A DNA stretch of 64,000 bases, from the NCBI GenBank assembly GCA_030431475.1, contig JAUIJD010000001.1, positions 62,001-126,000 on the forward strand, read 5' to 3'. The notes beneath the pieces were generated by a model. It was not told where the DNA came from. It saw nothing but the letters and a program-made list of their open reading frames with translations, and did no database searches. The stretch comes from Verrucomicrobiia bacterium (GTDB lineage: Bacteria; Verrucomicrobiota; Verrucomicrobiia; Verrucomicrobiales; Akkermansiaceae). This document shows positions 18,053 to 59,259 of this stretch, one piece after another. How positions within the stretch are numbered: the first letter of the stretch is position 1; each line of letters starts with the position of its first letter. Position numbers and translations under genes: made by a program.

Positions 18053-19828
18053 ATGATGCGCCGAATCCTCTGCGCCGGGTTGCTGCTCGCGCCACTCCTG
18101 CCTGCGCAGGAGCCCCTTTTCGCCCAAAGTCCCCGGGCCACCCACCCGAAGGACAAGACCCGCATCGAGGTCGAGGCGCTGTTCAGCATGCCCCCTCCCA
18201 CTGGCTACCTTCCGGTGCGGGTCACCGCGGTCAACCAGCGGGAAACCGACGGCCGTTTGCGCTTCAGCACCTTCTCGCAGAGCGGGGTCGAGCCTGAAGA
18301 CAGCGCGATGGAGTCCGAGTTCTCACTCGACAGTCCCGCCGGAGGTACCGTCACCCGCGACCTGCTGGTTCCGCTGACGACCCGCTTCGAGACCTCGGGC
18401 TACGGCGGGACATCCGTCCGGGTCAACATGTCTGGCAGCTTCGGCAGCAACAGCGGCAGCCTCAACTGCGGCTTCCATCCCGACGGGCCGGCCATCCTGA
18501 TGAGCGAGCCGCTCTTCACACCCAACTCGTCCAGCCTCGACGCCGAACTCAACCGCTCCCGTCGGGGCGGCTACGGGAGCTTCACCTTCGCGTCCAAGTT
18601 CACCGCCTCGATGATGCCCGAGGACTGGCGCGCCTACTCGGGCTACGACGTCATGGTGCTGACCGACAACGACTGGAACCTTCTCCCGCCCGGCGCCCGC
18701 GCCGCGGTGCTGCAGTGGGTCCGCCTCGGCGGCGTCGTCAGCATCTACCGCCAGACTTCCACAAACTTCGCCTCGCTCGGAATCGAGGCCGAAGGGAGCG
18801 GCGATCAGACCGGCTACGGCCTCGGCCGCATCGAACTCCTCAAGCTGTCAGGTACCGCGCTGGACGCACCTCGCACCGTGAGCCGCTACCACAGCCGCCC
18901 GGGCGTCGCCATCGAGGGGCTCAACGAGAGCATCACCGAGGACTACCACTCAAGCTGGCCGCTCCAGGACGAGTTCGGAAAGCAGAAGTTCGACTACGCC
19001 ATCTTCATCATCGTCCTGATCGCCTTCGGCGTGCTCGTCGGCCCCATCAACCTCTTCGTCTTCGCCAAGTCCGGCAAGCGCCACAAGCTGTTCATCACCA
19101 CGCCCATCATTTCCGTCGCCACCAGCGCCCTGCTGATCGGCATGATCCTGCTGCGCGACGGCACCGGGGGACGCGGCGCCCGCATCGCCCTGATCGAGGT
19201 GCGGCCGGAGAACGGCGAGAACCGCGCCTACGTCATCCAGGAGCAGGTGACCCGCACCGGCGTCCTGCTCGGCGCCTCCTTTGAAATCGGGGAAGACGTG
19301 GCGATCACGCCGGTCCCGATCGCCGACAGCGCCTGGGCCCGCCTCACGCCCGGCGTCGGCGGAGCGGGCATGCGCTTCACCTCGAGCTTCAGCGACGAGG
19401 GCATGAAGGCCGGGGGCGACTGGTTCCAGAGCCGCTCCGAACAGGGTCAGTTGATCCGCGCGGTCGTCCCGACGCGGGGGCGGATCGAACTCAAGGGCGG
19501 CGGCGGCGCGCCGACCTTCGTCTCGACCTACGACTTCCCGATCGAACGGCTTTACTACGCCGACCGTAGCAATGGCTACTGGCTGGTGAAGGACCTGGAG
19601 GCCGGCAAGGCGGCCGCCGGCACCACCATCAGCGAGTCCGACTACCGGGCCGCGGTCGCCGACGAGGCCCGGCGACTCGCCCGACGCCAGCGGGAGCAGC
19701 TCAACCGCGTCTCCAAGCGCGCCGACCACTACGTGGCCATCACCAGCGAGCCGCCCGCCATCGAGACCTTCGGCGCCATCCGCTGGGTCGACGAACGAGC
19801 CATCCTCACCGGACCCGTGCTGCGCTGA
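18053..19828 (+). CDS. Exported membrane-anchored protein of the MoxR operon, unknown function
   Basis: A 591-residue protein with a signal peptide (to about residue 19), a large extracytoplasmic domain of roughly 290 residues, two membrane segments (about 315-338 and 346-367), then a second domain of about 220 residues. The start at 18053 gives a clean signal peptide and lies 7 bp after the MoxR stop. The YDVMVLTDNDWNLLPPGARAAVLQWVRLGG stretch resembles the glutamine-amidotransferase-like fold seen in other MoxR-operon membrane proteins. I do not recognise a named family. It is presumably a structural partner of the VWA proteins encoded downstream. Confidence 0.7.
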   Translation: MMRRILCAGLLLAPLLPAQEPLFAQSPRATHPKDKTRIEVEALFSMPPPTGYLPVRVTAVNQRETDGRLRFSTFSQSGVEPEDSAMESEFSLDSPAGGTVTRDLLVPLTTRFETSGYGGTSVRVNMSGSFGSNSGSLNCGFHPDGPAILMSEPLFTPNSSSLDAELNRSRRGGYGSFTFASKFTASMMPEDWRAYSGYDVMVLTDNDWNLLPPGARAAVLQWVRLGGVVSIYRQTSTNFASLGIEAEGSGDQTGYGLGRIELLKLSGTALDAPRTVSRYHSRPGVAIEGLNESITEDYHSSWPLQDEFGKQKFDYAIFIIVLIAFGVLVGPINLFVFAKSGKRHKLFITTPIISVATSALLIGMILLRDGTGGRGARIALIEVRPENGENRAYVIQEQVTRTGVLLGASFEIGEDVAITPVPIADSAWARLTPGVGGAGMRFTSSFSDEGMKAGGDWFQSRSEQGQLIRAVVPTRGRIELKGGGGAPTFVSTYDFPIERLYYADRSNGYWLVKDLEAGKAAAGTTISESDYRAAVADEARRLARRQREQLNRVSKRADHYVAITSEPPAIETFGAIRWVDERAILTGPVLR

Positions 19829-19859
19829 AACTTCAAAAGTGAAACTCGAAATCTCAATG
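19827..19859. repeat. Left 33-bp imperfect inverted repeat of the four-helix-bundle insert
   Basis: Begins GAAACTT and overlaps the TGA stop of the preceding gene. It matches the reverse complement of 20246-20278 at 24 of 33 positions, including runs GAAACTT, AAACT, GAAA and CTCAA. It ends at the ATG of the enclosed gene. Confidence 0.7.
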
Positions 19860-20243
19860 ACGATGAAGTCCGGCGATCAGCGTGACATCAAACCCTACGA
19901 TCTCGAGGAGCGGACCTATGAGTTTGCTCTGCGTACACGCTTGTTTCTGAAAGGACGGAAATGGGACCCGGTGTCCTGGCCGGATGTCCGGCAGTTGCTG
20001 CGATCATCGGGCTCGGTGGCGGCCAACTACATCGAGTTCATCGAAGGAGTCAGCGATGACGACAAAACCTACCGACTCCGTATTTCAAAGAAAGAGGCAC
20101 GCGAATCGGGTCTCTGGATGCGATTGATTTCCGACTGCAACGAGATTCCTGACGAAACGGGCGAGTTGCTCGATTCTCTCATGCAGGAGGCGGACGAACT
20201 TGTGCGAATCCTGGCCTCCATCATCCGCAAGCGCGTGTCCTGA
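19857..20243 (+). CDS. Four-helix-bundle protein (23S rRNA intervening-sequence / Avd-like family)
   Basis: A protein of 128 residues from ATG 19857. GTG 19839 and ATG 19863 are alternative starts. It matches the small family first found in 23S rRNA intervening sequences, with DLEERTYEFALRTRLFL, the hallmark RSSGSVAANYIEF, and KKEARESGLWMRLI. The family folds as a pentameric four-helix bundle related to Avd of diversity-generating retroelements; its cellular role is unknown. Base composition is visibly less GC-rich than its neighbours. It is embedded, same strand, between the MoxR-operon membrane protein and the ABC ATPase and is bounded by inverted repeats, so it looks inserted. Confidence 0.85.
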   Translation: MTMKSGDQRDIKPYDLEERTYEFALRTRLFLKGRKWDPVSWPDVRQLLRSSGSVAANYIEFIEGVSDDDKTYRLRISKKEARESGLWMRLISDCNEIPDETGELLDSLMQEADELVRILASIIRKRVS

Positions 20244-20245
20244 CC

Positions 20246-20278
20246 CGTTGAGGTTTCAAGTTTAGACGTTCAAGTTTC
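20246..20278. repeat. Right 33-bp imperfect inverted repeat of the four-helix-bundle insert
   Basis: Partner of 19827-19859; it ends GTTTC, one base before the ATG of the ABC ATPase gene (20280). It also contains two similar direct copies of GTT(T)CAAGTTT. Confidence 0.7.
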
Positions 20279-20279
20279 C

Positions 20280-21320
20280 ATGTCCGCCCACGCCATCCGC
20301 GTCCACAACCTCTACCGCTACTTCGGCCAGCTGAAGGCCGTCAACGGCGTGTCCTTCGAGATCCCCCACGGCTCCGTGTGCGGCTTTGTCGGCGCCAACG
20401 GTGCCGGCAAGACCACCACCATGCGGATCCTCGCGTCGCTCGACTACCCGACCATGGGACTCGCCGAGATCTGCGGGATCAACGTCGTCCACCACCCCGA
20501 GCAGGTCCGGCGACTGATCGGATGGATGCCGGACCACTTCGGGAACTACGACCACATGACGGTGCTCGAGTATCTCGACTTCTACGCCCGGGCCTTCGGC
20601 TACTCCGGAAAGGAGCGCCGGACCCGGGTGCAGGAGGTCATGGAGTTCACCGACCTGATCCCGCTGGCGGAGCGCTTCTCCAACAAGCTCTCCAAGGGCA
20701 TGACCCAGCGCCTCTGCCTCGGCCGGGCCCTTCTCCACGACCCGCAGGTCCTGATCATGGACGAGCCCGCCGCCGGCCTCGATCCGAAGGCGCGCGTCGA
20801 GCTCAAGCACCTCATCCGCGTGCTCGCCGACGAGGGAAAGACCATCTTCATCTCCTCGCACATCCTCTCCGAGCTGGGGGAGATGTGCGACTCCCTGCTC
20901 TTCATCAACGCCGGCCGCATCGTCCACCATGGCGATGCCGAGTCGCTCAAGCTCGGCACCGACGGCACCGGCGGCATGCTCTTCGACGTGCAGGTGGTCG
21001 GCGACCCCGAGGCGCTCTCGGAGTGGTGCCTGGTGAATCCCTACGCCGAGTTCCTGGAAAGCCGTAAACGGGGCGGGCGGATCCGCATCGAGGGCGACGC
21101 CCCGGAGAAGGCCGCCGATGTCCTCGCTCGGATGGTCCGCGACGGCCTCAAGGTGGTCGAGTTCCACAAGGAGCAGCGCAACCTGGAGGATGCCTTCATC
21201 GACATGCTCGGTCGCATCGACCGGGGCGAGGAGGCCCAACCTCCCGTGATGCCCTCGCAGCCGGAGCCCTCGTTCACTCCCACCGCCGAGGCCCCGGACA
21301 CCCCCACTCCCCAAGCCTGA
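20280..21320 (+). CDS. ABC transporter ATP-binding protein
   Basis: A 346-residue ABC ATPase of the multidrug/gliding (ABC-2) class. Walker A GANGAGKTT is at residues 38-46, the signature LSKGMTQR at about 138-145, and Walker B LIMDEPAAGLDP at about 157-168, followed by the H-loop SSHIL. The C-terminal 100 residues form the accessory domain seen in ABC-2 exporters and end in a Pro/Thr-rich tail. The permease gene starts 4 bp later. Being in an operon with MoxR/VWA genes, the exporter may act in envelope assembly; its substrate is unknown. Confidence 0.93.
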   Translation: MSAHAIRVHNLYRYFGQLKAVNGVSFEIPHGSVCGFVGANGAGKTTTMRILASLDYPTMGLAEICGINVVHHPEQVRRLIGWMPDHFGNYDHMTVLEYLDFYARAFGYSGKERRTRVQEVMEFTDLIPLAERFSNKLSKGMTQRLCLGRALLHDPQVLIMDEPAAGLDPKARVELKHLIRVLADEGKTIFISSHILSELGEMCDSLLFINAGRIVHHGDAESLKLGTDGTGGMLFDVQVVGDPEALSEWCLVNPYAEFLESRKRGGRIRIEGDAPEKAADVLARMVRDGLKVVEFHKEQRNLEDAFIDMLGRIDRGEEAQPPVMPSQPEPSFTPTAEAPDTPTPQA

Positions 21321-48991: not shown

Positions 48992-51900
48992 TCAGGGCTG
49001 CTCGGCATTCAGGCGGTAGAAGTATTTGTCCGCCGGAGCCTGCACGGTGACCTGCTCGGTCGCTTCCAGGGTCCACGGCGCGCCGAGGTTCGGGCTGCTG
49101 TAGACGTCGATGTCGAGCACCGCGGTGCCGCCGACCCCCGGGTTGGTCACGGCGCCCATGACCCCGTTCATGCTCAGGTCGAGGATGGAGGTCTCGGTGT
49201 AGAGGTTGAACGCGAGCGGATCCCCCGTCACGTTGTCCTCGCCGGTCTGGACATCGGCTGCCTGCTTGGCCGCGATGGCCGCGAGCTGGGTGGCCGGATC
49301 CTGTTCGTTCACGTCCGGGTCGGTGCCGAGCGCTTCCTCGATCTGGTCGAGCAGACCGTCTGAGTCGCGGTCGGAGATCGTCAGGATGCGACCGTCCTTG
49401 ATCGACTCGTTGTAGGCGTCGTTGCCGTCGATCGCCGGTCCGGTGCCGTCCACCGTTCCGTCGAGGCCGATCACGTAGTCGGCGAGCGCCTGCTGATCGG
49501 TGACGCCCAGCGCGGTGTAGGGATACTGAACGCTGGTGTAGTAGGCCGTGCCGTTGCTGGCATAGCGGAACCACTGGTCACCCCCGGCGGCGGTGAAGGC
49601 GGGCATCGCGATGTCCACGGTGAGGTTGGGGACGGGCTGTCCGTCGACGATCAGGTCGGTGCCGTTGTCGAGCCTGGCCGACACGATCCGCGTCCCCGGG
49701 GTGGTGACCGACTCGATGTTGCCGTCGAGCACCAGTGCGGGCTTGGAGATGTCGTAGACGACGTCCATGCCGGCAATTTGGGCGAAGCGCCCGGTGCCAT
49801 CGCCGCTGCGTTGCGGATCGACGCCGTTCGTCGGGTCGTCGTCGACCGTCTTCGAGTAGCAGTTCTCGAGAAGGATCTTCAGGTCCGCGGTGGTCACATC
49901 CTCGACGACCGCCACGAAGTTGCCGAAGGGCGAGACGTTGAAGGTGGTCTGCAGGGTGATGTCACCGGCGGGAACGGCCGCACGGATGCCACCGCCGTTG
50001 GCCATGGCCACCTGCGGGACATCGACGCCGAAGCCCGCGGCAAGCTCCTGTCCCTTGGCGAGGTAGGCATCGGCCACGAGATTGCCGACCGCACGCTCGT
50101 CGGAGCGGATCAGGTTCGAGCTCTGCGGCAGCGTGGTGTCGGTGTTGCCGATCACGGTGGCGGCGAGCGCATCCAGGAAGGTCTGGACCGGGGCGATGTC
50201 GGCGGTGACGTCGGCATCGGCAGCGAAACCGTTGGTGGCGTCGGCGGTGTCCGAGACGATCAGCGCCGGGTTGGAGGTCGAGTCGATGGTCACGCCGCTG
50301 CCGCTGAAGTTCAGCGTCAGGCGGTTGAGGTAGCCGTAGCTGCCGGCACCGGTGACGATGGGAAGTTGATTCCCCCCGAGGTCGGTAGCGGTGCTGAGGG
50401 TCGGATAGCTGCCTTCGATGGCGTCGTCCGCGTCCCCGTCGGTGCCGCCGACAACGCCGTCATCGCCGAGGAAGACGCTGGTGTCGATGACGCTGGCAGG
50501 AGCGGCGGTACCATAGACGCTGCGTGGCGAGGCTGCGGCCTCGTCGACGAGCAGTTCATCGCCGCCCCCGGCGACGATCACGTCGATCCCGGATGCAAGC
50601 GCCGGGACCAGGTCCTGGTCGGTCGCGATGCCCTGCAGGTGGCTGACCAGCACGATGGCATCGACATTCTGACCCTGCAGGCTGGCGACCTGCGCGTTCA
50701 CCGAAGCGGCAACGGCGCTGATGATCGTGTCGCGCGGCGAGCTGATGAAAGGCAGGTTGTCGGTGGTGGCACCGATGATGCCCACCTTCTTCATGCCGCC
50801 CGCGGTGGCCACCTCGACAACGGCGCTGCTCGCGACGTTGCCCGACGTCACCTGGGCAAGCATGTCGGCTTCATTGGCGAAGTCGAGGTTGGCGCTCAGG
50901 TAGAGGGACGGGTGCGTCGTCTGGGCATCGCCGATGAACTCAGCGAGCACGTCCGGACCGAAATCCATCTCGTGGTTGCCGATGGCGAAGGCATCGTAGC
51001 CGATGCGGCTCAGGGCCAGGGCATCGTAGAAGGTCCGGCTGCCCGGGGCTCCACTTTCGAGACTGGCGGCAAACTCGGGTCCCGCGAGAAAGCTGTCACC
51101 CGCGAAAACCTCGACCACGCCGTGACCGATGTTGGCGAAGAAGTCGTGGTGGGCGTCCATGGCGGTCTTGAAGCGGGCGATGCCGCCGTGATCGGCGCTG
51201 CCCTTGTAGCTGAAGAGGTCCGACTCGCCATCGTTGTTGTGGAGGATGGTGAGGTTGAAGCTCTCGCTGTTCTCCAGGTTGTAGATGCCGATGCCGCCGG
51301 AGATGCCGCTGTCCCCCTCGTAGCCGAAGATCGCGAGTTCGGCGCCGGTCGGACTGTCGGCGGCGGAGATCGTCTGGACGGTCTCCGGGGCGTTCAAACC
51401 GTTGTCCCGGTTGTTGAGATAGCTGATCGGGGCCGGATTGGCCGGATCGGTGATGTCGACCATGACCACGCCGTTCTGGCGCTCGTTGCCGACCATCGCG
51501 ACCATCTTGCTGCCGAGCTGGATGACGCTGACGGCCTCGGGCTCGGAACCCTTGTTGTCCGAGCGCTTGTCGAACTCGCCCGGATCCCCGCCGTCGTTGG
51601 CGTTGTGGATCGAGGGATCCTCCTGGGAAAGGTAGCTCTCGAGCGAGAGGTGCGACACGCGGGTCAGGCTGCTGGTGTTGCCGTCGTACTCGAAGACCGA
51701 GATGCCCCGGGTGCCGAGGCAGACCATGTCGGTGAGGTCACCGTTGATGTCCGTGGCCTGGTCGATGAGAATGTCGATGCGTCCGAGGGCATCCTCATCC
51801 TGAAGCAGGGCGTCGAACTGGGCCTGGGTCAGGGGACCGCTGCCGGCGTCGTAGAGGGGAGTGGCGGCGACCTTGTCGTCCCCGGTGCTGGCGAAGTCTC

Positions 51901-53449
51901 CGGCGCGCGTGATGTCGGAGTCGTCGGGGCGGGCGTCGCCTTCGTCGGCTGTCACGACGTAGGTCTTTCCTCCGGCTTCATAGACGGCGATGGCGTCGGG
52001 CATGTGCAACCCGGTGATCACATCGCTGATGTCGATACCGTCCTTGTCCGAGGCATCGGCGGTGTAGGTCACCCCGCCGAGGTCGTAGATCTCCCAGGCG
52101 GGACTGCTGGTGGAGGCGAAGATGCCGGCGAGGTCCTTGAGCACCCCCACGGCGTTGTTCTCCTGGCAGCCGACGAAGATGGCATCACCGGTCGCATCGA
52201 AGGCGACATACTCCGGCTCCATCTCATCGGCGGTGCCGTAGCGGACGCCCGTCAGGGGAGCGGTGGTGAAGTCGACGTGGATCCCCGAGACCGAAGCGGC
52301 CGGGGCGAGATCGCCGGAGCTCACGCCGCTGAGGTCGTAGAGCGACACCGAGCCGTTCTGATTGTTGGCCGGCAGCGCGGTTTCGCTGTCCTCGTCCCAG
52401 GCATACTCGGCCTCGTTCGCCACGACGCAGTAGCCGTTCGGCCCGAAGGCCACCATGTCCGGGTGATATCCGGTCGGAGCCTGACCGATGACGGTGCCGG
52501 TGGTCGCGTCGAAGAAAACGATGGCCCCGATCTGCGGGATGCTCAGGTCGCCGGTGGTGTTGATCGCCGGATCGTCCACCTGAACGACCGCGGCGCCGAG
52601 ACCGGTACCGCGCGGATCGAGGGCGACGGAACTCACCCCCTTGGCGTTGGCGACCGCGCCCAGGACGTCGATCGAAAACTGGATCTGATACTTCTGGTTG
52701 CCGTCGATCCAGTTGAGGATGGTCACCCCTCCGTTCGGATTGTCGGTGACGGCGAGCACGAAGTCCGTGCCGATCCTGGCATGGGAAACCACCTCACCGG
52801 AACCTTCACCGGTGAGGATGGCCTGATAGAGGCTGACCTCTTCCGGGGCGGCCGGAGGAACCGGACCCGCCGGGGTGTAGGTGCCGATCGGGAAGGGCGT
52901 GGCGGCCGATCCGTTGGTGGTCTCGCCGTTCAGGGCTCCAACGCCACTGAAGCTCCAGTTCGCGATGGCGAAGGTGGTCGCGTCGGGGCCGGTCTCATCG
53001 ACCCGATAGGCCCAGCCGTCGGCGTATTCCCATGCCTCGCCGGTGCCATCGACACTGATGTCGCCGAAGACGTCGATCACCGATCCGCTCTGAAAGAGCT
53101 CGATGGCGTCGTCGCCATTGATCCCGGCGGCCGCATCGGTGAAGTCGGGGGCAAAGCCGAAGAAGTTCTGGAACTCGACCCCCTCCGAGGCCACGTAGAG
53201 GAACTGCCCTTCGGTGGCGCTGCCGGAGAGGGTGAACTCCTCGCCGTCGGTGCCGCCGCCGTTGTTGGCGGAGCCGATCCCGTAGAGGCTCAGATCGGCG
53301 ATGTCGTCGGTGGCGTAGAGCTCGACGGCCTTGGGAACGCCGCCGGTGAGCGGGCCGTCAATGACGCCCGTGATGATGAGATCGGCACTCGCTGCTCCGA
53401 TGAGGGGAGTCGCCGCTGCGAGCCGCAGGATGGTCTTGGTATGATTCAT
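48992..53449 (-). CDS. Giant secreted protein: lamin-tail, choice-of-anchor I propeller and 5'-nucleotidase-like domains
   Basis: A 1485-residue exported protein. Signal peptide to about residue 22; a lamin-tail-like beta domain (about 24-190, AVELYATDDIADLSLYGIG); and a beta-propeller choice-of-anchor I region (about 200-720, with VTADEGDARPDDSD and YEGDSGISGGIGIYNLE). A metallophosphatase/5'-nucleotidase module follows (about 733-1370) with Asp740 in HNNDGESD and GNHEMDFG (Asn825, His826, Glu827). Near the C terminus, DRDSDGLLDQIEEALG resembles an EF-hand-type calcium loop. The usual final GHxH metal motif reads AGGGDELL, so the second metal site differs from classical 5'-nucleotidases. It is probably a phosphate-scavenging or surface enzyme. 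Intrinsic terminator downstream. Confidence 0.85.
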   Translation of the reverse strand: MNHTKTILRLAAATPLIGAASADLIITGVIDGPLTGGVPKAVELYATDDIADLSLYGIGSANNGGGTDGEEFTLSGSATEGQFLYVASEGVEFQNFFGFAPDFTDAAAGINGDDAIELFQSGSVIDVFGDISVDGTGEAWEYADGWAYRVDETGPDATTFAIANWSFSGVGALNGETTNGSAATPFPIGTYTPAGPVPPAAPEEVSLYQAILTGEGSGEVVSHARIGTDFVLAVTDNPNGGVTILNWIDGNQKYQIQFSIDVLGAVANAKGVSSVALDPRGTGLGAAVVQVDDPAINTTGDLSIPQIGAIVFFDATTGTVIGQAPTGYHPDMVAFGPNGYCVVANEAEYAWDEDSETALPANNQNGSVSLYDLSGVSSGDLAPAASVSGIHVDFTTAPLTGVRYGTADEMEPEYVAFDATGDAIFVGCQENNAVGVLKDLAGIFASTSSPAWEIYDLGGVTYTADASDKDGIDISDVITGLHMPDAIAVYEAGGKTYVVTADEGDARPDDSDITRAGDFASTGDDKVAATPLYDAGSGPLTQAQFDALLQDEDALGRIDILIDQATDINGDLTDMVCLGTRGISVFEYDGNTSSLTRVSHLSLESYLSQEDPSIHNANDGGDPGEFDKRSDNKGSEPEAVSVIQLGSKMVAMVGNERQNGVVMVDITDPANPAPISYLNNRDNGLNAPETVQTISAADSPTGAELAIFGYEGDSGISGGIGIYNLENSESFNLTILHNNDGESDLFSYKGSADHGGIARFKTAMDAHHDFFANIGHGVVEVFAGDSFLAGPEFAASLESGAPGSRTFYDALALSRIGYDAFAIGNHEMDFGPDVLAEFIGDAQTTHPSLYLSANLDFANEADMLAQVTSGNVASSAVVEVATAGGMKKVGIIGATTDNLPFISSPRDTIISAVAASVNAQVASLQGQNVDAIVLVSHLQGIATDQDLVPALASGIDVIVAGGGDELLVDEAAASPRSVYGTAAPASVIDTSVFLGDDGVVGGTDGDADDAIEGSYPTLSTATDLGGNQLPIVTGAGSYGYLNRLTLNFSGSGVTIDSTSNPALIVSDTADATNGFAADADVTADIAPVQTFLDALAATVIGNTDTTLPQSSNLIRSDERAVGNLVADAYLAKGQELAAGFGVDVPQVAMANGGGIRAAVPAGDITLQTTFNVSPFGNFVAVVEDVTTADLKILLENCYSKTVDDDPTNGVDPQRSGDGTGRFAQIAGMDVVYDISKPALVLDGNIESVTTPGTRIVSARLDNGTDLIVDGQPVPNLTVDIAMPAFTAAGGDQWFRYASNGTAYYTSVQYPYTALGVTDQQALADYVIGLDGTVDGTGPAIDGNDAYNESIKDGRILTISDRDSDGLLDQIEEALGTDPDVNEQDPATQLAAIAAKQAADVQTGEDNVTGDPLAFNLYTETSILDLSMNGVMGAVTNPGVGGTAVLDIDVYSSPNLGAPWTLEATEQVTVQAPADKYFYRLNAEQP

Positions 53450-53614
53450 GGTTGGGATGGATTCACGTCCTGCCTGATGGCGGGATGGCCGAAAATTGTC
53501 CGTCCCCTCGTCCCCAGCAACCGCGCGACGGCAAACAACTCGTCACATGACCTTTTCGTCACTCCTCCTCGCTTCGGAGCTGGCGTTTCAAGCCATCGAA
53601 CGCATTCTTCGCGG

Positions 53615-54844
53615 GTGGCCAGCTACGTCATCTCCATCGCCGCCTTGAAGCGCAACACGGGCATCCTCCGCGAAGTCAGGGACGCCGCCGGCTGCCAGCT
53701 GGTTCTCGCGCTCAAGGGCTTCTCCTGTTGGAAAGCCTTTCCCTTACTCCGCGACGACCTCGACGGCTGTTGTGCCTCGGGGCTGTGGGAAGCACGCCTC
53801 GCCCGGGAGCACTTCGGAAAGGACGTCGTCACCTACTCACCCGCCTACGCCGAGGAGGAGATCACGGAGCTTCTCGAGTTCACCACCCACCTCGACTTCA
53901 ACTCCTTGCCGCAATGGTTCCGTTTCCGCGACCGCGTCACCGCCCATCCGCGCTTCAAGGCCGGCGAGCTCCACTGCGGCCTGCGAGTCAACCCCGAGCA
54001 CTCGACCGGTGCCACCCCGCTCTACGACCCCTGCGTTCCGGGATCACGCCTCGGCATCCCCGCCGATGCCCTTGAGGGTGCGGATCTCACCGGCCTCAGC
54101 GGCCTCCATTTCCACACCCTCTGCGAACAGGATTCCGACGACCTCGAGACCACGCTCCACGCCATCGATGACAAGTTCGGCGAACTACTACGTTCACCGC
54201 AGTTCACCTACCTCAACATGGGGGGCGGTCACTGGATCACCCAGCCCGACTACGACCGCGAGCGCCTCGTCCGCCTCGTGCGGGAGGTCCGCGAGAGATA
54301 TGGCGTCGAGGTCTGGCTCGAGCCCGGCGAAGCGATCGCGATCCACACCGGCGTGCTGCGGGCGGAGGTGATCGACGTCTTCGAGAGCATGGGCCACCGC
54401 CACGCCATCCTCGACGTCTCCGCCACCGCCCACATGCCCGACGTCCTCGAGATGCCCTACCGGCCGGACGTCTTTCTAGCGCAGAGCGCGGAGCGAGGAG
54501 CGCGGAGCGACGATCGACCTCAACCCGCCGTCACCTTCGCGGGCGAGACCTACCTTCTGGCAACCGACCCGTCACGTTCCGCAATCCGCGATCCGCAATC
54601 CGCCATCCATCGCCTCGGTGGCCCGACCTGCCTCGCCGGTGACGTGATCGGCGACTATGCGTTTCCGCGGGTGCTGGTCCCCGGCGACACACTCGTCTTC
54701 GACGACATGGCCCACTACACCATGGTCAAGACGACCACCTTCAACGGCGTCCCCCACCCCGCCATCACGCTGCAACACGAGGACGGCTCGCTCGAAGTCC
54801 TTCGCGAGTTCGCCTACGAGGACTTCCGGGACCGCCTCTGCTGA
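53615..54844 (+). CDS. nspC: Carboxynorspermidine decarboxylase
   Basis: A fold-type III PLP enzyme of 409 residues that removes CO2 from carboxy(nor)spermidine, the last step to (nor)spermidine. The PLP lysine is Lys34 in LVLALKGFSCW; conserved blocks are LHFHTLCEQ, LNMGGGHWIT, WLEPGEA and RLGGPTCLAGDVIGDY. GTG 53615 is the only start near the conserved N terminus (ASYVISIAALKRN). Between YRPDVF and RLGG it carries about 25 extra residues encoded by two kinds of short repeats (54484-54510 and 54582-54609). This segment is normally short in NspC. Confidence 0.93.
   Translation: MASYVISIAALKRNTGILREVRDAAGCQLVLALKGFSCWKAFPLLRDDLDGCCASGLWEARLAREHFGKDVVTYSPAYAEEEITELLEFTTHLDFNSLPQWFRFRDRVTAHPRFKAGELHCGLRVNPEHSTGATPLYDPCVPGSRLGIPADALEGADLTGLSGLHFHTLCEQDSDDLETTLHAIDDKFGELLRSPQFTYLNMGGGHWITQPDYDRERLVRLVREVRERYGVEVWLEPGEAIAIHTGVLRAEVIDVFESMGHRHAILDVSATAHMPDVLEMPYRPDVFLAQSAERGARSDDRPQPAVTFAGETYLLATDPSRSAIRDPQSAIHRLGGPTCLAGDVIGDYAFPRVLVPGDTLVFDDMAHYTMVKTTTFNGVPHPAITLQHEDGSLEVLREFAYEDFRDRLC
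54484..54609. repeat. Two short tandem-repeat blocks inside nspC
   Basis: Block one is two copies of the 13-mer GAGCGCGGAGCGA (54484-54496 and 54498-54510). Block two is four heptamers of the form C(A/G/C)ATCC(G/A) at 54582-54609, translated RSAIRDPQSAIH-like. The same heptamer recurs at 59238-59258. Confidence 0.75.
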
Positions 54845-59212: not shown

Positions 59213-59237
59213 GCCGACAGCCTCTCTCCGCGAGGCT

Positions 59238-59258
59238 CGATCCGCAATCCGCAATCCG
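59238..59258. repeat. Three tandem heptamers (C[AG]ATCCG) between pdxJ and purH
   Basis: CGATCCG-CAATCCG-CAATCCG, ending just before the purH stop at 59260. Same unit as the block embedded in nspC at 54582-54609. Confidence 0.7.
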
Positions 59259-59259
59259 C

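What the first reader, a model, noticed from the sequence alone, without database searches (positions are those of the whole stretch)
19827..20278. Four-helix-bundle gene bounded by 33-bp inverted repeats, inserted in a MoxR/ABC operon
Seen directly: 19827-19859 matches the reverse complement of 20246-20278 at 24 of 33 bases. The left copy overlaps the upstream stop codon and the right copy ends one base before the next ATG. The enclosed gene belongs to the family known from 23S rRNA intervening sequences, which also lie between paired arms, and is less GC-rich than its neighbours. Inference: this is a 452-bp mobile or transcript-folding unit, an IVS-like element living in mRNA instead of rRNA, that may be cut out or processed by RNase III or control downstream ABC expression.
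Basis: partly seen in the sequence, partly recalled or inferred. Interest (0 to 1): 0.75.

Follow-up and report, generated by a model that had tools for sequence, protein, structure and literature searches.

The report
Mobile-looking gene between mirrored seven-letter repeats
A small helix-bundle gene wedged inside an operon is bounded by mirror-image runs of seven-letter DNA repeats; the same layout turns up around this gene family in many bacterial phyla, with a different but self-matching repeat at each place, so it looks like a widespread and, as far as I could find, undescribed kind of small mobile DNA unit.

Summary
In detail: 19827-19859 matches the reverse complement of 20246-20278 at 24/33 bases, rare at that spacing. 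It is one of 13 such loci in this genome, 72 in 18 congeners and 106 from a cross-phylum search. About 79% of four-helix-bundle (4HB; PF05635/TIGR02436) genes lie between well-matched inverted arms, versus 6% of control genes. Arms are tandem arrays of 7-nt (sometimes 8-nt) repeats, differing between loci yet complementary within each. At one orthologous site the arm sequence has turned over completely while staying self-complementary. Relocated copies with unrelated flanks share homology exactly from arm edge to arm edge; relatives have clean empty sites; gene-less inverted arrays with the same repeats are dispersed elsewhere. The genes are under purifying selection and mostly point with host transcription. 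The mobile-unit inference is supported. The RNA/RNase III reading is not: mismatches show no G.U excess (150 G.U-compatible versus 168 A.C), so complementarity seems kept at DNA level. I found no description of this class. Transposition was not observed, no mobilising enzyme was identified, and action of the 4HB protein on the arms is inferred.

The parts
19827..19859 (+). left arm: degenerate 7-nt repeats GAAACTT CAAAAGT GAAACTC GAAATCT, overlaps the upstream stop codon
   Evidence: 24/33 complementary to the right arm; heptad arms at the same junction in two congeners
19857..20243 (+). four-helix-bundle (S23/IVP family) gene; ATG at 19857 or 19863
   Evidence: PF05635 and TIGR02436 matches; purifying selection in orthologous units
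20246..20278 (+). right arm: inverted degenerate 7-nt repeats, ends one base before the ABC start codon
17969..19828 (+). upstream operon gene (619-aa ORF, no Pfam match; a start at 18054 is also possible)
20280..21320 (+). downstream ABC-transporter ATPase gene, used to find the junction in relatives
   Evidence: PF00005 match; 83-92% identical orthologues in most congeners

Best explanation
The 452-bp segment is one copy of a widespread class of small, mobile-looking DNA units. Each consists of a single 4HB (S23/Avd-fold) gene between inverted arrays of 7- or 8-nt repeats. Shown here: the arms are the ends of the unit; they are self-complementary but locus-specific; they change in concert; complementarity shows no RNA-wobble signature; the gene is under purifying selection and usually lies in sense in the host operon; gene-less inverted arrays with the same repeats exist. 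Inferred: as single-stranded or supercoiled DNA the arms fold into a hairpin or cruciform recognised mainly by structure; the 4HB oligomer binds it; host replication or repair enzymes, or an unidentified enzyme in trans, copy the unit into other intercistronic gaps; templated copying between arms keeps them matched while repeat slippage changes their sequence. Units that land in sense in an operon are expressed and retained.
For: Own-arm scores far above cross-locus and control-gene scores. In-register identity 0.85 against 0.53-0.55 when shifted one repeat. Arm turnover with retained complementarity at an orthologous site. Homology of relocated copies ends at the arm edges. Clean empty junctions. 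dN/dS mostly 0.05-0.2. No G.U excess. Gene-less inverted arrays sharing the repeats. Sense orientation. Structure-not-sequence DNA hairpins are required in DGR homing, whose accessory protein Avd I place in the same fold family from general knowledge (PMC3240598).
Against: No transposition observed, no target-site duplication, no catalytic gene in the unit, no engine identified: reverse transcriptase is absent from the own genome and uncorrelated with 4HB number, and Y1 transposase genes carry different palindromes. Many units are vertically inherited at fixed sites, which also fits a domesticated function. 4HB binding to the arms is untested.
Confidence: 0.55

Rival explanations
1. IVS-like RNA element: the arms pair in the operon mRNA and RNase III cuts the 4HB segment out or processes the transcript, as for 23S rRNA intervening sequences.
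For: Sense orientation in operons; same protein family and inverted ends as the rRNA IVS (PMC4990558); the predicted RNA fold pairs the arms.
Against: No excess of G.U-compatible mismatches (150 versus 168); fold no better than shuffles (z -0.68); many arms are only partly matched.
Confidence: 0.15
2. Autoregulatory cassette: the 4HB oligomer binds the repeat cores as an operator (DNA) or as repeated RNA sites and tunes its own operon; the inverted layout serves looping or dual binding and the unit is no longer mobile.
For: Purifying selection at fixed sites; repeats resemble arrays of a constant core plus variable bases.
Against: In-register matching extends to the variable bases, which an array of binding sites does not need; some units relocated; gene-less arrays exist.
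Confidence: 0.18
3. Passive repeats: heptamer arrays arise by polymerase slippage between genes and 4HB genes happen to lie beside them.
For: Solo heptad arrays exist without 4HB genes; heptamers are over-represented among bacterial simple repeats (PMC4692102).
Against: Well-matched inverted arms at 79% of 4HB loci versus 6% of control genes; homology of relocated copies stops at the arms; Y1 transposase genes of the same genus have palindromes of another kind.
Confidence: 0.08

Closest known systems
23S rRNA intervening sequences (IVS) with an S23p ORF, e.g. Coxiella burnetii
   Same: Same protein family; ORF between inverted ends (28-bp stem in Coxiella, PMC4990558)
   Different: Here in protein-coding operons, not rRNA; arms are heptad arrays that differ per locus; no sign of selection for RNA pairing
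REP palindromes with RAYT (Y1) transposases
   Same: Gene flanked by inverted palindromes, with gene-less copies dispersed in the genome
   Different: No transposase here; RAYT loci of this genus carry distinct, conserved REP palindromes without the heptad period
Heptameric repeat arrays: GGGAATC in Xanthomonas (PMC4692102), TAACTGA in Beggiatoaceae (PMC4679880), STRR of cyanobacteria
   Same: Intergenic 7-nt arrays, many in inverted pairs in Xanthomonas; 4HB arms in the xanthomonad family use the same units
   Different: A link to 4HB genes was not found in the papers searched; the window copy carries a gene between its arms
Diversity-generating retroelements (Avd plus DNA hairpin at the target)
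   Same: Avd is a four-helix-bundle relative (general knowledge); DNA hairpin whose structure rather than sequence matters (PMC3240598)
   Different: No reverse transcriptase, template or variable repeat here; the DGR stem is about 8 bp with a 4-nt loop
MITEs
   Same: Short units with terminal inverted repeats; gene-less versions
   Different: No parent transposase, no target-site duplication, no fixed end sequence

Membership tests
23S rRNA IVS | lies within a 23S rRNA gene | tested here: not met
   Neighbours are protein genes; no Rfam match anywhere in the window
23S rRNA IVS | S23/4HB ORF between inverted ends | tested here: met
23S rRNA IVS | excised by RNase III | not testable with these tools
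   No RNA data; indirect G.U test negative
REP/RAYT | Y1 transposase gene with conserved REP palindromes | tested here: not met
   The unit encodes a 4HB protein; RAYT loci of the genus carry other palindromes
MITE or insertion sequence | terminal inverted repeats marking a relocating unit | tested here: met
   Homology of relocated relatives ends at the arms; not shown for the window copy itself
MITE or insertion sequence | target-site duplication | tested here: not met
   Longest direct repeats at the ends near null: 3.42 vs 3.40 (genus), 3.76 vs 3.32 (cross-phylum)
MITE or insertion sequence | end sequence shared by copies and a transposase in cis or trans | tested here: not met
   Arms are locus-specific; no transposase in the unit; a trans-acting one was not excluded
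Diversity-generating retroelement | reverse transcriptase with template and variable repeats | tested here: not met
   No RVT_1 match in the genome
Short tandemly repeated heptamer arrays | 7-nt tandem repeats in intergenic DNA | tested here: met
   Period 7 in most arms; xanthomonad 4HB arms use the published unit

The most novel reading that the evidence does not exclude
A cross-phylum class of self-propagating DNA units whose only gene encodes a non-catalytic four-helix-bundle protein and whose ends have no fixed sequence: the ends are recognised and rebuilt as self-complementary heptad arrays, and they seed many of the unexplained heptamer repeats dispersed in bacterial genomes.
Probability: 0.4. 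Interest if true: 0.92.

Novelty: new variant of a known kind. Interest (0 to 1): 0.8.

Why it matters
Many bacterial genomes carry genes annotated only as 'four helix bundle protein', and heptamer repeats such as GGGAATC in Xanthomonas have lacked an origin. These results tie the two together and give a testable reason for both. Ends that keep their complementarity while changing sequence are not how known insertion sequences, MITEs or REPs work, and the class offers a candidate source for the 23S rRNA intervening sequences, whose origin is still unclear.

Tried and rejected
The repeat finder at default settings missed the arms. Target-site duplication: none; a suspected ATGA duplication at the window junction of one congener did not generalise. 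Reverse transcriptase as engine: no correlation (rho 0.05) and none in the own genome. RAYT as engine: its genes carry other palindromes; the 4HB~Y1 count correlation (rho 0.62) may only reflect general repeat load. Heptad-array density in 200-kb samples: 1 and 0 in two congeners without a detected 4HB gene versus 7 and 3 in two 4HB-rich ones, suggestive but small. RNA folding of the unit: not unusual. The within- versus between-species arm comparison (0.72 versus 0.48) is biased because arms were chosen by their own match; only sites with wholesale arm turnover are persuasive. Protein similarity against arm similarity did not separate co-adaptation from common descent. Literature: eight searches found no paper describing heptad-bounded 4HB units; most subscription papers and preprints are not covered.

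Full report
What is there. Bases 19827-19859 match the reverse complement of 20246-20278 at 24 of 33 positions. Among 4000 random pairs of segments at the same spacing in the window, 0.7% reach the same alignment score and none reaches 24/33 ungapped. The enclosed ORF is a PF05635/TIGR02436 four-helix-bundle protein, and the unit is poorer in GC (53%) than its neighbours (66-68%). It sits between codirectional genes of a MoxR/ABC operon: the left arm overlaps the upstream TGA and the right arm ends one base before the ABC start. Both arms have a 7-nt period.

It is not alone. The genome (G000, 4.73 Mb) gives 14 PF05635 matches at 13 loci. Aligning each left arm with every reversed right arm gives 12-39 for own pairs and mostly 7-17 for foreign pairs. 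The largest foreign value (33) joins L003 and L013, two units with related proteins and GTGTTTCGG arms at unrelated places. In 18 congeners, 72 distinct 4HB loci have a median own-arm score of 23.5, against 12 for arms paired across loci; 79% score at least 18, against 6% of 65 control genes. For ungapped arms, in-register identity is 0.85, falls to 0.53-0.55 when shifted by one repeat, and to about 0.25 at most other shifts. So the arms are heptad arrays, and the match also covers the positions that vary between repeats.

It is cross-phylum. A scan of one genome per species, plus viral contigs, gave 106 further loci (Bacteroidota, Planctomycetota, Acidobacteriota, Nitrospirota, Pseudomonadota, Elusimicrobiota, Patescibacteria and others) with the same layout: median own-arm score 21, cross-pair median 10. 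Of 84 well-matched arm pairs, 68 have period 7 and 16 period 8. The scan kept the best 80 genome hits only, so these frequencies are for canonical family members, not an unbiased census.

The arms change in concert. At one orthologous site (upstream of a ribonucleotide-reductase-like gene; flanks align over about 1 kb on each side) nine species carry orthologous 4HB genes, but the arms are built of GTGATCG, AGTTTTC, GTAGAAA or GGAAAAA; in each species left and right still match. The window site shows the same in three species, with arms of GAAACTT, GAAACTC and AAGTTCC type. The genes are under purifying selection (dN/dS mostly 0.05-0.2).

The unit moves, or has moved. L010 and L092 (66% protein identity) and L090/L093/L096 (82-86%) have unrelated neighbours; their homology runs from the outer edge of the left arm to the outer edge of the right arm and stops, most sharply for L010/L092. 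At metK|ahcY and pheS|pheT some congeners carry the unit, others have a clean short junction, and others carry gene-less repeat elements of other families in the same gap. No target-site duplication was found. Movement between species by horizontal transfer is not separated from movement within a genome.

Gene-less relatives. ACTTNNN arrays without a 4HB gene are dispersed through the genus, some in inverted pairs. In an Elusimicrobiota genome AGGCACANAGGCACANAG occurs 38 times, repeatedly as inward-facing pairs about 40-150 bp apart. In the xanthomonad family many 4HB arms are GGGAATC, GGGATTC or GGGACCG heptads. GGGAATC is the repeat reported in Xanthomonas campestris as 186 arrays, with 70 convergent inverted pairs (PMC4692102); that paper contains no mention of four-helix or intervening-sequence proteins.

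RNA or DNA. If the stems were selected as RNA, mismatches that leave a G.U pair on the transcript should outnumber those that leave A.C. Over 171 arm pairs the counts are 150 and 168 (G.U fraction 0.47, 95% CI 0.42-0.53). The 462-nt RNA does not fold better than its shuffles. I therefore place the complementarity at DNA level. A strand bias in mutation could shift this ratio, but would have to cancel a real excess. Sense orientation (upstream gene codirectional in 67 of 70 callable genus loci, both neighbours in 51; cross-phylum 58 of 85 with both) is then best read as retention of units transcribed from the host operon. Gene orientation was called by a simple ORF heuristic, and orthologous loci are not independent.

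Mechanism. Shown: unit, ends, concerted arm change, selection on the gene, past relocation of relatives. Inferred: a hairpin or cruciform made by the arms is the recognised substrate, the 4HB oligomer binds it, and host or trans-acting enzymes copy the unit. Precedent for structure-over-sequence recognition of a DNA hairpin comes from DGR targets (PMC3240598). Solved family members exist (2gsc from Xanthomonas campestris, 2rld). No reverse transcriptase was found in the genome, and Y1 transposases of the genus have their own REP palindromes.

Filing. As an IVS the unit fails a defining feature (it is not in rRNA); as a MITE or IS it lacks a shared end sequence, a transposase and a target-site duplication; as REP/RAYT or DGR it lacks the enzyme. 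It works most like a repeat-bounded mobile unit carrying an IVS-type gene, hence 'new variant of a known kind', with the categorically new reading left open.

Limits. All evidence is comparative; many genomes are draft or metagenome assemblies; transposition, binding and processing were not observed; the literature library excludes most subscription papers.

Noticed in passing
window 54478-54518 and 54578-54608: Two heptad arrays (AGCGCGG-type and TCCGCAA-type) lie in frame inside a decarboxylase-like ORF (49778-54844, + strand), encoding SAERGARS and SAIRDPQSAI stretches.
   Followed up: partly
window 59231-59259: Solo ATTGCGG-type heptad array just upstream of a pdxJ-like gene and just after the stop of a purH-like gene, both on the - strand; sister species carry 4HB units with the same repeat in their arms (L086, L083).
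   Followed up: partly
G007:C2 about 279986-280021 (L258/L259): Solo GATCACT/GATCACC heptad array exactly between two codirectional nuo-like genes in a congener with no detected 4HB gene.
   Followed up: no
L290-L323 (pheS|pheT and metK|ahcY junctions): The same junctions repeatedly host unrelated short palindromic repeats (e.g. CGCCAAGA- and ACACGGAA-type) in species without the 4HB unit.
   Followed up: partly
L090, L093, L096: The arm repeat (ATTTCAGATCT-type) also occurs once inside the 4HB coding sequence, in frame.
   Followed up: no
L357-L375 (Y1 transposase loci of the genus): RAYT-type genes with well-conserved flanking REP palindromes (e.g. GTCCCAACGGGAC ... GCCCGGCACGAAGTGCCGGG); 2-28 Y1 matches per genome.
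   Followed up: partly
G000:C42:10489-10807 (L009/L013/L106): 4HB gene split over two reading frames, a possible frameshifted pseudogene that still keeps its GTGTTTCGG arms.
   Followed up: no
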